A DNA stretch of 64,000 nucleotides from assembly GCF_900250075.1 (NCBI RefSeq), contig NZ_LT977070.1:806001-870000 (forward strand). Direction: 5' to 3'. The notes beneath the pieces were generated by a model. That model saw only the letters and a list, made by a program, of their open reading frames with translations. It was not told the origin of the DNA and made no database searches. Of the stretch, positions 4,902 to 63,111 are shown one piece after another (positions within the stretch are counted from its first letter, which is position 1; the number at the start of each line of letters is the position of its first letter). A program made the position numbers and the translations under genes. The DNA comes from Cupriavidus taiwanensis (GTDB lineage: Bacteria; Pseudomonadota; Gammaproteobacteria; Burkholderiales; Burkholderiaceae).

Positions 4902-5785
4902 GCGCTGGCCGCGCTGGCGCTGTCGGTGTTGGCTTCGCGGTGCACCTGCAGCAGGTGCACCTGGCGCGCGTCGGCGCGCAGCACCTCGAAGCGGATCGGC
5001 GGCAGCGTGATGACCTCGCCGCGATGGGGCACGTGGCCCACGTGGTTGGACAGCAGCCCGCCGACGGTGTCGACATCGTGGTCCGAGAAGCCCGTGCCGA
5101 AGGCCTCGTTGAACTGCGCGATCTCGGTCAGGCCGTGCACGCGCCAGCTGCCGTCGGGCATCGGCAGGATATTGTCCTGGTCTTCGTCCAGGTCGAATTC
5201 GTCCTCGATATCGCCAACGATCTGTTCCAGCACGTCCTCGATCGTCACCAGCCCGGCCACGCCGCCGTATTCGTCGACCACCATGGCGATATGGTTGCGG
5301 TTGATGCGGAACTCGCGCAGCAGGATGTTCAGGCGCTTGGATTCGGGAATGAACACCGCCGGACGCAGGGTCTCGCGCAGGTCGAAGGCGGGATCGGTGT
5401 AGTAGCGCAGCAGGTCCTTGGCCAGCAGGATGCCGATGATGTTGTCGCGGCTGCCTTCGTAGACCGGGAAGCGCGAGTGCGCGGTCTGCTGCATGAAGGG
5501 GATGAAGGTCTCCGGCGCGTCGGCGATATTGACCAGATCCATCTGCGCGCGCGGCACCATGATGTCGGCGGCGGTCAGTTCGGAAACCTGGAACACGCCC
5601 TCGATCATCGACAGGGAATCGGCATCGATCAGGCTGCGCTCATGCGCTTCCTGGAGCACTTCAAGCAATTCCGCGCGGGTGTCCGGCTCGGGGGAGATCA
5701 GGTCTGACAGGCGTTCGAGCAGCGATCTTGGCCGATCGGCCTGCTTCAGGTAAGCGGGCTTCGAACTGGGATAGGGGTCGTTCAT
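4898..5785 (-). CDS. corC: CBS-pair protein of the CorC/HlyC family
   Basis: Soluble partner protein of the CorC/YbeX group, linked to magnesium/cobalt efflux and, in recent work on the family, to ribosome-related physiology. The 295-residue protein has an acidic helical N-terminus, two CBS domains (about 70–130 and 140–200; hallmark segments ADIMVPRAQMD and MVVDEYGGVAGLVTIEDVLE) and a C-terminal CorC_HlyC transporter-associated domain (about 215–290). There is no large membrane domain, which separates it from the CNNM-like long forms. It begins a two-gene unit with lnt and lies 132 nt from ybeY. The exact biochemical role is uncertain. Confidence 0.93.
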   Translation of the reverse strand: MNDPYPSSKPAYLKQADRPRSLLERLSDLISPEPDTRAELLEVLQEAHERSLIDADSLSMIEGVFQVSELTAADIMVPRAQMDLVNIADAPETFIPFMQQTAHSRFPVYEGSRDNIIGILLAKDLLRYYTDPAFDLRETLRPAVFIPESKRLNILLREFRINRNHIAMVVDEYGGVAGLVTIEDVLEQIVGDIEDEFDLDEDQDNILPMPDGSWRVHGLTEIAQFNEAFGTGFSDHDVDTVGGLLSNHVGHVPHRGEVITLPPIRFEVLRADARQVHLLQVHREANTDSASAASA

Positions 5786-28457: not shown

Positions 28458-28826
28458 CGTCGTCCCCGCGCAAGCGGGGACCCAGCGTCTTAGACTCGAT
28501 GACCCAACAATCCTACGTCTACATGTTGGCAAGCCAAAGAAATGGCACGCTTTACGTGGGCGTCACGTCAGACCTGTTGAGACGGGTATGGCAGCACAAG
28601 GAGGGGTTTGTCGAGGGGTTCACCAAGCAATATGGGGTGAAGCAATTGGTCTGGTATGAATCGCACGAATCGCTGGAAGCAGCAATCACGCGGGAAAAGC
28701 AGATCAAGAAGTGGAACCGGGCTTGGAAGATTGAACTAATTGAAGGCGCAAATCCTTACTGGAACGACTTGTACGCAGGCCTAACCGCCTAAAAGACACT
28801 GGGTCCCCGCGTACGCGGGGACGACG
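28458..28826 (+). mobile_element. Repeat-flanked GIY-YIG element (copy A) inside sucC–sucD
   Basis: A 369-bp unit bounded by inverted arms of about 34 bp. The left arm begins CGTCGTCCCCGCG and ends CCCAGCGTCTT (to 28491); the right arm (from about 28792), read on the other strand, begins CGTCGTCCCCGCG and ends CCCAGTGTCTTTT. Each arm folds on itself: GTCCCCGC-GCAA-GCGGGGAC on the left and GTCCCCGC-GTAC-GCGGGGAC on the right. Everything between the arms is one gene, which starts 7 nt after the left arm and whose stop codon touches the right arm. Four short copies without a gene occur elsewhere in the window. No clean target duplication is seen; AAGGA occurs in both flanks but may be ribosome-binding sequence. 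Confidence 0.75.
28499..28792 (+). CDS. GIY-YIG family nuclease (small, single domain)
   Basis: A 97-residue protein consisting only of a GIY-YIG catalytic domain. The two tyrosine motifs appear as YVYML and LYVGVTSDLLRRVWQHKEG, with the arginine helix following. The probable metal-binding Glu lies in LEAAITREKQIKKW. It resembles the short COG2827-type endonucleases. It belongs to no operon logically; it fills the space between two inverted repeat arms in the sucCD operon. Base composition is close to half GC (28 of the first 60 bases by my count), clearly below its neighbours, and codons such as TTG, AAT and CAA are frequent, which suggests foreign origin. No Shine-Dalgarno is obvious. Confidence 0.88.
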   Translation: MTQQSYVYMLASQRNGTLYVGVTSDLLRRVWQHKEGFVEGFTKQYGVKQLVWYESHESLEAAITREKQIKKWNRAWKIELIEGANPYWNDLYAGLTA

Positions 28827-41734: not shown

Positions 41735-41805
41735 CGTCGTTCCCGCGCAGGCGGGAACCCAGCGTCTTTATGAGTCACTGGATTCCCGCCTGCGCGGGAA
41801 TGACG
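41735..41805 (+). repeat. Miniature palindromic element, copy B
   Basis: 71 bp. Left arm CGTCGTTCCCGCG…CCCAGCGTCTTT and right arm …AGTCACTGGATTCCCGCC…GGGAATGACG are inverted, almost touching. Stems TTCCCGC-GCAG-GCGGGAA and ATTCCCGC-CTGC-GCGGGAAT. Lies between ilvE and the SNF2 gene, 35 nt before the latter's putative start codon. Confidence 0.9.
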
Positions 41806-52678: not shown

Positions 52679-52770
52679 CGTCGTTCCCGCGCAGGCGGGA
52701 ACCCAGCGTCTTTAACGCGGCGCTGACCAAAGGCAAAAGTCACTGGGTCCCCGCTTCCGCGGGGACGACG
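52679..52770 (+). repeat. Miniature palindromic element, copy C
   Basis: 92 bp between fba and purC. Left arm CGTCGTTCCCGCG…CCCAGCGTCTTTAA; right arm AAAAGTCACTGGGTCCCCGC…GCGGGGACGACG, with about 20 bp between. The right hairpin uses the CCCC/GGGG variant (GTCCCCGC-TTCC-GCGGGGAC), the left the TCCC/GGGA variant, so base pairs change on both sides of the stem together. Confidence 0.9.
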
Positions 52771-53750: not shown

Positions 53751-53841
53751 CGTCATTCCCGCGCAGGCGGGAATCCAGCGTCTTTTGCGAGCCTCGATGC
53801 ATAACCTAAAGTCACTGGGTTCCCGCCTTCGCGGAAATGAC
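53751..53841 (+). repeat. Miniature palindromic element, copy D
   Basis: 91 bp between purC and purE. Left arm CGTCATTCCCGCG…TCCAGCGTCTTTT; right arm TAAAGTCACTGGGTTCCCGCC…GGAAATGAC, the latter with one decayed stem base. The spacer reads GCGAGCCTCGATGCATAACC: CTCGATG also occurs where the nuclease gene of copy A starts, and TAACC/TAAAG resembles the end of that gene. This suggests an internal-deletion derivative. Confidence 0.88.
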
Positions 53842-63023: not shown

Positions 63024-63111
63024 CGTCATTCCCGCGAAGGCGGGAATCCAGCGTCTTTCAAGTCCCCTTCGGGGATGAAGTCACTGGGTTCCCGCCTTCG
63101 CGGGAACGACG
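63024..63111 (+). repeat. Miniature palindromic element, copy E
   Basis: 88 bp between the monooxygenase operon and the PACE gene. Left arm CGTCATTCCCGCG…TCCAGCGTCTTTCAA; right arm GAAGTCACTGGGTTCCCGCC…GGGAACGACG. The spacer contains a further small hairpin (CCCCTTCGGGG). Unlike the other copies, its flanking genes run on the minus strand, yet the element keeps the plus orientation. Confidence 0.9.

What the first reader, a model, noticed from the sequence alone, without database searches (positions are those of the whole stretch)
28458..28826. GIY-YIG nuclease gene exactly bracketed by palindromic inverted arms: a possible minimal mobile unit
The 97-residue nuclease gene starts 7 nt after one 34-bp arm, and its stop codon touches the other. 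The arms are inverted copies of one another, and each is also a hairpin. The gene is lower in GC than everything around it. Gene-free versions of the same arms occur four more times in the window. Together this looks like a nuclease-carrying element with MITE-like offspring. A single-domain GIY-YIG enzyme would replace the tyrosine-type (RAYT) transposase that moves classical REPs. Seen: arms, gene, copies. Known: GIY-YIG enzymes act in homing; RAYTs move REPs. Inference: the nuclease cuts or moves the arms.
Basis: partly seen in the sequence, partly recalled or inferred. Interest (0 to 1): 0.87.

Follow-up and report, generated by a model that had tools for sequence, protein, structure and literature searches.

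The report
Nuclease gene between matching DNA hairpins
A tiny bacterial DNA-cutting gene sits between two inverted hairpin repeats, and many related genes in other bacteria are bracketed the same way, with hairpin type tending to follow gene type; this points to an unrecognised kind of small mobile element and a candidate enzyme for a class of repeats that had none.

Summary
A 97-residue GIY-YIG gene (28499-28792) lies between inverted 34-nt hairpin arms in the sucC-sucD intergene of a Cupriavidus genome.

The arms are CGTC-tagged REPs, a superfamily described in 2013 as apparently lacking a dedicated transposase. Of 76 close-homologue loci with usable flanks, 72 carry such an arm within 150 nt and 50 carry them inverted on both sides; neighbouring ORFs: 9 and 1 of 143. 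A phylum-wide sample is weaker but positive: 45 of 107 with strict arms, and 36 of 56 without any short arm have other inverted repeats beyond control.

Arm type follows nuclease type, even among paralogues of one genome. Gene-free pairs in this genome share the element's inner ends. One genome has three similar copies at different places. Of 60 congeners, 57 lack the gene.

Not shown: that the protein cuts the arms, any transposition event, a clean empty site, exact element ends or a target duplication. Several genomes keep many arms without the gene.

I read it as a GIY-YIG-encoding REP element with REPIN-like offspring; cutting and movement are inferred. Eight open-literature searches naming GIY-YIG showed no paper on the link; two listings were capped.

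The parts
28458..28491 (+). left arm: CGTC-tagged REP hairpin (CGTC end outward, CCA tail inward) plus conserved inner tail GCGTCTT
28499..28792 (+). 97-aa single-domain GIY-YIG nuclease gene, subfamily with an NPxWxDLY-like C-terminal signature
28793..28826 (-). right arm: inverted CGTC-tagged REP hairpin, inner tail GTGTCTT
41736..41804 (.). gene-free inverted arm pair (REPIN-like), absent at the orthologous site of both near relatives
52680..52769 (.). gene-free inverted arm pair, conserved in both near relatives
53752..53777 (+). arm whose inverted partner, about 40 nt downstream, is degenerate; no arm at the site in both near relatives
63025..63110 (.). gene-free inverted arm pair, absent in both near relatives

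Best explanation
The segment 28458-28826 is one copy of a small genetic element: arm, GIY-YIG nuclease gene, inverted arm. The arms are CGTC-tagged REPs, and the nuclease is the enzyme dedicated to them. Shown by sequence: gene and arms tend to be inherited together as a type-matched unit in many bacteria; similar units occur at different places; gene-free pairs carry the same inner ends. Inferred: the nuclease recognises its own arm type, probably as a hairpin or cruciform (its fold resembles UPF0213 and, more weakly, the branched-DNA nuclease Slx1), and cuts there. Break repair, replication-associated copying or rejoining then moves or loses the arm-to-arm segment. Internal deletion leaves short inverted pairs (REPIN- or MITE-like) that can be acted on in trans. 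Rough confidence by step: unit with dedicated nuclease 0.85; nuclease acts on the arms 0.65; that action causes mobility 0.5.
For: Bracketing: 76 close-homologue loci, arm within 150 nt on either side in 72, inverted on both sides in 50; pseudo-positions in the same loci 2 of 4927; arm density 4.38 per kb near the gene, 0.123 per kb elsewhere; neighbour ORFs 9 of 143 either side, 1 of 143 both. Broader sample: 45 of 107 strict, 51 of 107 generic, 30 of 107 generic on both sides inverted; generic controls 41 and 3 of 878. The 56 left have best inverted-repeat scores with median 21 against control median 8; 36 of 56 exceed the control 95th percentile of 12. Co-inheritance: protein and arm distances correlate, r 0.43, 0 of 1000 permutations; arms shuffled only among paralogues of one genome never fit as well, 0 of 2000. 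Copies: three in G228, 87-91% identical over the 505-508-nt unit, at different places. Presence/absence: 3 of 60 congeners have the gene; 29 of 29 other congeners read have a 32-99-nt sucC-sucD intergene without arms; a G228 site has the gene in 1 of 30 loci read. Offspring: 33 of 33 arms read in the genome share the inner-tail pattern. Co-occurrence: gene with at least 6 arms, odds ratio 8.4 over 299 genomes, relatedness not corrected. Specificity: the genome's Y1 transposase hit and its three other GIY-YIG loci have no arms. dN/dS 0.10-0.23 among the G228 copies.
Against: No clean insertion junction or target duplication: the empty sites seen have rewritten intergenes. Element ends are approximate: similarity among the G228 copies runs 20 and 50 nt beyond the arms in two comparisons and 150 and 81 nt beyond in the third. 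Of 224 gene-negative genomes, 28 still have 6 or more arms, and in 14 arm-rich gene-negative genomes a looser search found only 3 weak distant hits, so arms persist and perhaps spread without the gene. Only 41 of 75 gene-positive genomes reach 6 arms, in part because the pattern misses longer stems. In the phylum sample 20 of 107 homologues show neither a short arm nor an inverted repeat above control. The own genome holds a single gene copy. Monophyly of the Cupriavidus proteins is not rejected (p-AU 0.60), so one old insertion with many losses is possible here. GIY-YIG enzymes are not known to join DNA strands (recalled).
Confidence: 0.6

Rival explanations
1. Passenger: CGTC REPs are spread by some other enzyme (a RAYT or another transposase) and the nuclease gene was captured between two arms and is carried along.
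For: Arm-rich genomes without the gene exist. REPs of the GTAG class are thought to be moved by RAYTs (PMC3733652, abstract and passages).
Against: In this genome no other inverted arm pair within 5 kb leaves a gene-sized gap, and the only Y1 transposase hit has no arms. The 2013 survey found no tyrosine transposase gene flanked by CGTC repeats. Paralogous nucleases in one genome tend to keep different arm types that match those of their relatives elsewhere.
Confidence: 0.2
2. Host-serving nuclease: the protein is a structure-specific repair enzyme that removes hairpins or cruciforms formed by REPs, and lies beside its substrate for regulation rather than for mobility.
For: Fold resembles UPF0213 (Foldseek E 2.6e-4) and, weakly, Slx1 (5.3e-3). 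Low dN/dS among the G228 copies. A Caulobacter paper discusses three such small genes as possible repair endonucleases, one with an SOS box (PMC1839093, passages).
Against: Patchy presence (3 of 60 congeners), several copies in some genomes and similar arm-flanked copies at different places look like a mobile unit, not a housekeeping gene.
Confidence: 0.15
3. Homing variant: the nuclease cuts arms or gene-free pairs elsewhere and repair by gene conversion copies the gene-bearing version in, so it spreads among existing arm sites rather than to new sites.
For: Gene-free pairs share inner ends with the element. At one G228 locus, 7 of 29 other loci read carry partial matches to the element's arm regions but no gene. 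The genes at sucC-sucD in three Cupriavidus species are nearly saturated at silent sites (pS 0.74-0.75 against the window's gene) while kept neighbour ORFs have 0.02-0.57, as if replaced in place.
Against: Arms are short for homologous recombination. Cupriavidus monophyly is not rejected. Replacement was not seen directly.
Confidence: 0.25
4. Ordinary coincidence: small genes live in intergenes, and intergenes of REP-rich genomes hold hairpins.
For: Arms are common in some hosts; flanks of different species also match each other at times, because arm types are shared.
Against: Neighbouring ORFs in the same loci: 1 of 143 bracketed, 0 of 69 for ORFs under 600 nt; within-genome arm-type matching.
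Confidence: 0.02

Closest known systems
CGTC-tagged REPs (Di Nocera, De Gregorio and Rocco 2013, PMC3733652; abstract and passages read)
   Same: CGTC end, stem of 8-9 bp mostly beginning AT, loop of 4-5 nt, CCA tail, mostly paired; includes Neisseria repeats
   Different: Published as apparently lacking a dedicated transposase; here a GIY-YIG gene lies between the arms. Repeats with longer imperfect stems and other tails also occur at homologues.
RAYT/REP systems with REPINs (GTAG class)
   Same: A small enzyme gene flanked by REPs, with gene-free inverted pairs elsewhere in the genome
   Different: RAYTs are tyrosine transposases with a HUH motif (PMC3733652 passages); here a GIY-YIG nuclease, CGTC tag, and no arms at the genome's Y1 hit
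Neisseria dRS3 repeats
   Same: A gonococcal homologue (62% identical) has this arm type within about 185 nt on both sides
   Different: Recalled as intergenic mosaic repeats and phage targets; a search for GIY-YIG with dRS3 found no paper
UPF0213/YhbQ-type GIY-YIG proteins and Slx1
   Same: Single GIY-YIG fold; nearest solved structures
   Different: The own-genome UPF0213-like paralogue (my label, from its small size and weak profile match) lacks the C-terminal signature and has no arms; Slx1 is larger and partner-dependent (PMC7017083, passages)
GIY-YIG homing endonucleases
   Same: Catalytic fold; weak PHROG match to a homing endonuclease family (E 0.0023, residues 6-40)
   Different: No intron seen, a single domain, hairpin arms as borders; tblastn at E 1e-10 found none in 50,697 phage records

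Membership tests
CGTC-tagged REP (arms) | Unpaired CGTC tag, 8-9 bp stem, 4-5 nt loop, CCA tail, multicopy, mostly inverted dimers | tested here: met
   definition. Many arms here begin GT rather than AT in the stem
GIY-YIG superfamily (protein) | Pfam GIY-YIG domain with conserved Tyr, Tyr, Arg, His, Glu | tested here: met
   E 1.4e-16; Y8, Y19, R29, H33, E66 invariant in 40 sequences; catalytic roles recalled
GIY-YIG superfamily (protein) | Nuclease activity | not testable with these tools
   needs purified protein
RAYT/REP system | Y1 HUH tyrosine transposase encoded between the REPs | tested here: not met
RAYT/REP system | GTAG tag on the repeats | tested here: not met
   CGTC tag
Mobile element with MITE-like derivatives | Copies at different places, alike between the ends, unrelated outside | tested here: inconclusive
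   G228 has three such copies, but similarity runs 20-50 nt beyond the arms in two comparisons and 150 and 81 nt in the third; the window's own genome has one gene copy
Mobile element with MITE-like derivatives | Gene-free derivatives sharing terminal sequence | tested here: met
   33 of 33 arms read
Mobile element with MITE-like derivatives | Clean empty site or target-site duplication | tested here: inconclusive
   Empty sites found, but intergenes rewritten
Homing endonuclease gene | Insertion into an occupied recognition site by repair | tested here: inconclusive
Anti-phage defence (PADLOC) | Convincing match to a defence protein model | tested here: not met
   only PDC-S14 at E 0.013 over part of the profile

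The most novel reading that the evidence does not exclude
A new class of bacterial mobile element: a single-domain GIY-YIG nuclease, with no transposase, recognises its own type of CGTC hairpin and drives spread of the arm-to-arm unit and of gene-free REPINs, in Pseudomonadota and other phyla. It would be the missing enzyme of the CGTC-REP superfamily, including Neisseria dRS3-type repeats.
Probability: 0.5. Interest if true: 0.95.

Novelty: new variant of a known kind. Interest (0 to 1): 0.85.

Why it matters
CGTC REPs occur in bacteria of several phyla, and the survey that named them left open what mobilises them (PMC3733652, passages). This result names one candidate enzyme family, whose named members in the listings carry only labels such as GIY-YIG nuclease family protein or putative endonuclease, and gives type-matched arm and protein pairs that can be tested on simple hairpin oligonucleotides. 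If right, a nuclease that is not known to join strands (recalled) would sustain a genome-wide repeat family, unlike HUH transposases.

Tried and rejected
A relaxed stem pattern in the window alone is only mildly above chance (1 of 100 shuffles reaches it). RAYT as the mover here: the single Y1 hit has no arms. Phage origin: no tblastn match at E 1e-10 in 50,697 phage records. Defence system: no convincing PADLOC match. A known RNA family at the arms: only two sub-threshold Rfam hits, not at the arms. Clean empty sites by comparison with G013/G014 and with 29 other loci at a G228 site: absence is clear, junctions are not. Independent insertion into the same sucC-sucD site: suggested by near-saturated silent sites, but the one-clade test does not reject Cupriavidus monophyly. 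A first test that left close Cupriavidus relatives outside the clade gave p 0.0127 and was set aside for that reason. Excision scars: one REPIN site is a single collapsed hairpin in a relative, but in the held loci such head-head hairpins are few: 5 hits, three of which look like one orthologous site, against 3 tail-tail hits, so no claim is made.

Dropped rows: one search used 76 of 80 loci (the rest had short flanks). The phylum sample used matches covering at least 80 of 96 model positions: 29 loci plus 80 of 83 further eligible rows; three were not fetched (one at a contig edge), and two of 109 had short flanks, leaving 107. One search used 159 of the 162 coded among 202; some codes are noisy (L184's differs from the repeat seen). 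In one search the gene-picking rule was crude and kept some wrong-strand ORFs, so the neighbour pS range is rough. In one search ten loci gave length 0 because minus-strand hits were not turned; one search repeats the count with that mended, 29 of 29 readable.

Paper searches naming GIY-YIG: (listings only). Searches accepted any 2 of 6 terms and listed 40 of 46 and 25 of 666 papers. One search covered the names COG2827, UPF0213 and YhbQ; dRS3 with Neisseria. The library holds open-licence PubMed Central papers and no preprints, so absence from print is not established. Passages were read in PMC3733652, PMC9465073, PMC1839093 and PMC7017083; in PMC12306157 and PMC6006769 the terms matched only the reference list.

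Full report
What is there. The window lies in a 6.77-Mb, 14-contig genome (G000). Between sucC and sucD, in the same direction, lies a 97-codon gene with a GIY-YIG domain (E 1.4e-16), framed by 34-nt inverted arms that are themselves perfect 8-bp hairpins. The start codon is 7 nt from one arm and the stop codon touches the other. The gene is 51.0% GC against 63-64% for its neighbours.

The arms are a known repeat class. A strict arm pattern occurs 63 times in the genome and its reversed control 0 times. There are 24 inverted pairs within 5 kb: 23 are spaced 42-64 nt, and one, the gene-bearing pair, 341 nt. The 33 arms that I could read in the 30 fetched stretches all continue inward with the same kind of tail, GCGTC/GCGAC or GTGAC/GTGTC, mostly followed by TT, as the element does. 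Stems covary. [quoted passage not shown]

Homologues are bracketed too. A back-translation scan of genome contigs confirmed 289 relatives and kept the best 80, so this set is biased to close kin. In the 76 with enough flank, an arm lies within 150 nt upstream in 61, downstream in 61, on either side in 72, and inverted on both sides in 50; the four without are L033, L037, L064 and L075. At 4927 pseudo-positions in the same loci both sides were met twice; arm density is 4.38 per kb within 300 nt and 0.123 per kb elsewhere. Of 143 other ORFs in the same loci, 9 have an arm on either side and 1 on both; of the 69 under 600 nt, 6 and 0. A direct search for the best inverted repeat gave scores of 20 or more in 49 of 78 loci, and in 56 of 400 deliberately mismatched flank pairs; the latter is high because different species share arm types. 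The organisms named are mostly beta- and gammaproteobacteria, with a cyanobacterial isolate (Leptolyngbya sp. PCC 6406) and MAGs of several other phyla; the MAG assignments are not independent proof of host range. In the large protein database the search returned 8000 relatives, its cap.

A wider sample. In 299 genomes drawn over the phylum, 75 have the gene at E 1e-15. Of 107 homologues with flanks, 45 have a strict arm within 150 nt on either side, 51 a looser GTC-headed hairpin, and 30 such hairpins inverted on both sides; controls for the looser kind 41 and 3 of 878. The remaining 56 were tested for any inverted repeat between the flanks: median score 21 against 8 in mismatched flanks, and 36 of 56 above the control 95th percentile of 12. 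A number of these are longer repeats with a CGTCATT-like head, an ATCCA-like tail and a long structured loop, so the arm family looks broader than the strict pattern. The other 20 of 107 show nothing above control. Of 12 plasmid-collection homologues that I fetched out of 31 records, 11 have a hairpin of this kind (GTC- or CTC-headed) within 220 nt on at least one side; Planktothrix (L206) has none. The strict scan alone, out to 400 nt, finds arms at 7 of 12.

Arm type follows nuclease type. I coded the first eight stem bases for 162 of 202 loci. Protein and arm distances correlate (Mantel r 0.43, 0 of 1000 permutations). To remove host lineage, I shuffled arms only among paralogues of the same genome (17 genomes, 45 loci): the arm of a nuclease resembles that of its nearest relative in another genome (mean difference 2.47 of 8) more than in any of 2000 shuffles (2.95, sd 0.14). 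Genome G257, for example, has five paralogues, most about 50% different, whose arms fall into about four types. Four of the 159 rows used were broken copies. This shows co-inheritance, which fits specificity but does not prove it.

Copies at several places. Genome G228 has three copies 87-91% identical over a 505-508-nt arm-to-arm unit; one has an in-frame stop. Two of the three comparisons lose similarity 20 nt outside one arm and 50 nt outside the other; in the third (L260 with L267) it continues 150 and 81 nt outside, so the exact ends are not fixed by these copies. dN/dS among them is 0.10-0.23. At one of these sites the gene is present in G228 only, of 30 loci read out of 61 genomes matched; 7 of the other 29 carry partial matches to the arm regions. 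At sucC-sucD, all 29 other congeners read have intergenes of 32-99 nt without arms (mending), and a profile search finds the gene in 3 of 60 congeners, at the same site in all three. The near relatives G013 and G014 lack it. Of 18 arm sites of the genome checked against these two, 11 had both flanks: arms or a remnant are kept at four, and no strict arm is found at seven, the element's own site among them. In no case was the junction clean.

Genome-wide co-occurrence. Over 299 genomes, at least 6 arms are found in 41 of 75 gene-positive and 28 of 224 gene-negative genomes (odds ratio 8.4, Fisher p 1e-12); relatedness is not corrected. In the genus sample the three gene-positive genomes have 68, 100 and 112 arms, and 11 of 57 gene-negative ones have 12 or more. 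Against a simple picture, some gene-negative congeners have more arms (G003 with 128, G031 with 131), and a looser search of 14 arm-rich gene-negative genomes found three weak, distant GIY-YIG hits and nothing else. So the gene is not needed for arms to persist.

The protein. The 40-sequence alignment has invariant Y8, Y19, R29, H33 and E66, the kind of residues expected of a GIY-YIG active site (recalled). The model has mean pLDDT 93.5. The nearest solved structures are UPF0213 BH0048 (Foldseek E 2.6e-4; sequence profile E 1.3e-5) and, more weakly, Slx1 (5.3e-3). A signature near NPxWxDL is present in 176 of 202 homologues, 34 of which have no coded arm, and is absent from the genome's UPF0213-like paralogue, which has no arms.

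How it may work. The simplest account is that the nuclease cuts its arm type as an extruded hairpin or cruciform, and that repair, copying or rejoining moves or deletes the arm-to-arm segment; gene-free pairs are internal deletions acted on in trans. A homing version, in which gene-bearing copies convert gene-free sites, is close behind. A single REPIN site that in a relative is one collapsed hairpin would fit excision by cuts in both loops, but such cases are too few to count. A passenger role or a host repair role is less likely but not excluded.

Novelty. The repeats are known, the fold is known, and RAYT-REP systems are the known kind that this resembles. A GIY-YIG gene as the enzyme of CGTC REPs was not seen in the listings of the open-licence paper searches (two of them capped), nor in the passages read of the four papers named in Tried and rejected. 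Preprints and most subscription papers were not searched. I file it as a new variant of a known kind on present evidence; if catalysis on the arms is shown, it would be a class of its own.

Noticed in passing
L165 and L218 (genome G120): Two element copies 99% identical over 291 nt; one carries an insert of about 150 nt, holding an inverted CGTC pair, near the gene's 3' end, between short TTTA-like repeats.
   Followed up: partly
L325:6556-6581, site orthologous to own-genome C1:81496: A REPIN in this genome is a single GTC-stem-loop-stem-GAC hairpin in relative G014, as if both arms had been joined at their loops.
   Followed up: partly
window 28458-63110: Four other arm sites lie within 40 kb of the gene, 0.5 expected by uniform placement (simulated p 0.0017, post hoc); G376 also has many arms near its gene.
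   Followed up: partly
sucC-sucD intergene in G000, G015, G376: The nuclease genes at the same site are nearly saturated at silent positions against the window's gene (pS 0.74-0.75) while kept neighbour ORFs range from 0.02 to 0.57; Cupriavidus monophyly is not rejected.
   Followed up: partly
L206 (Planktothrix agardhii plasmid): A homologue without arms lies between an MmeI-type restriction gene and DISARM drmA.
   Followed up: no
L169 and L214 (genome G333): Two homologous gene matches lie within about 1.2 kb of each other on one contig, with arms around them.
   Followed up: no
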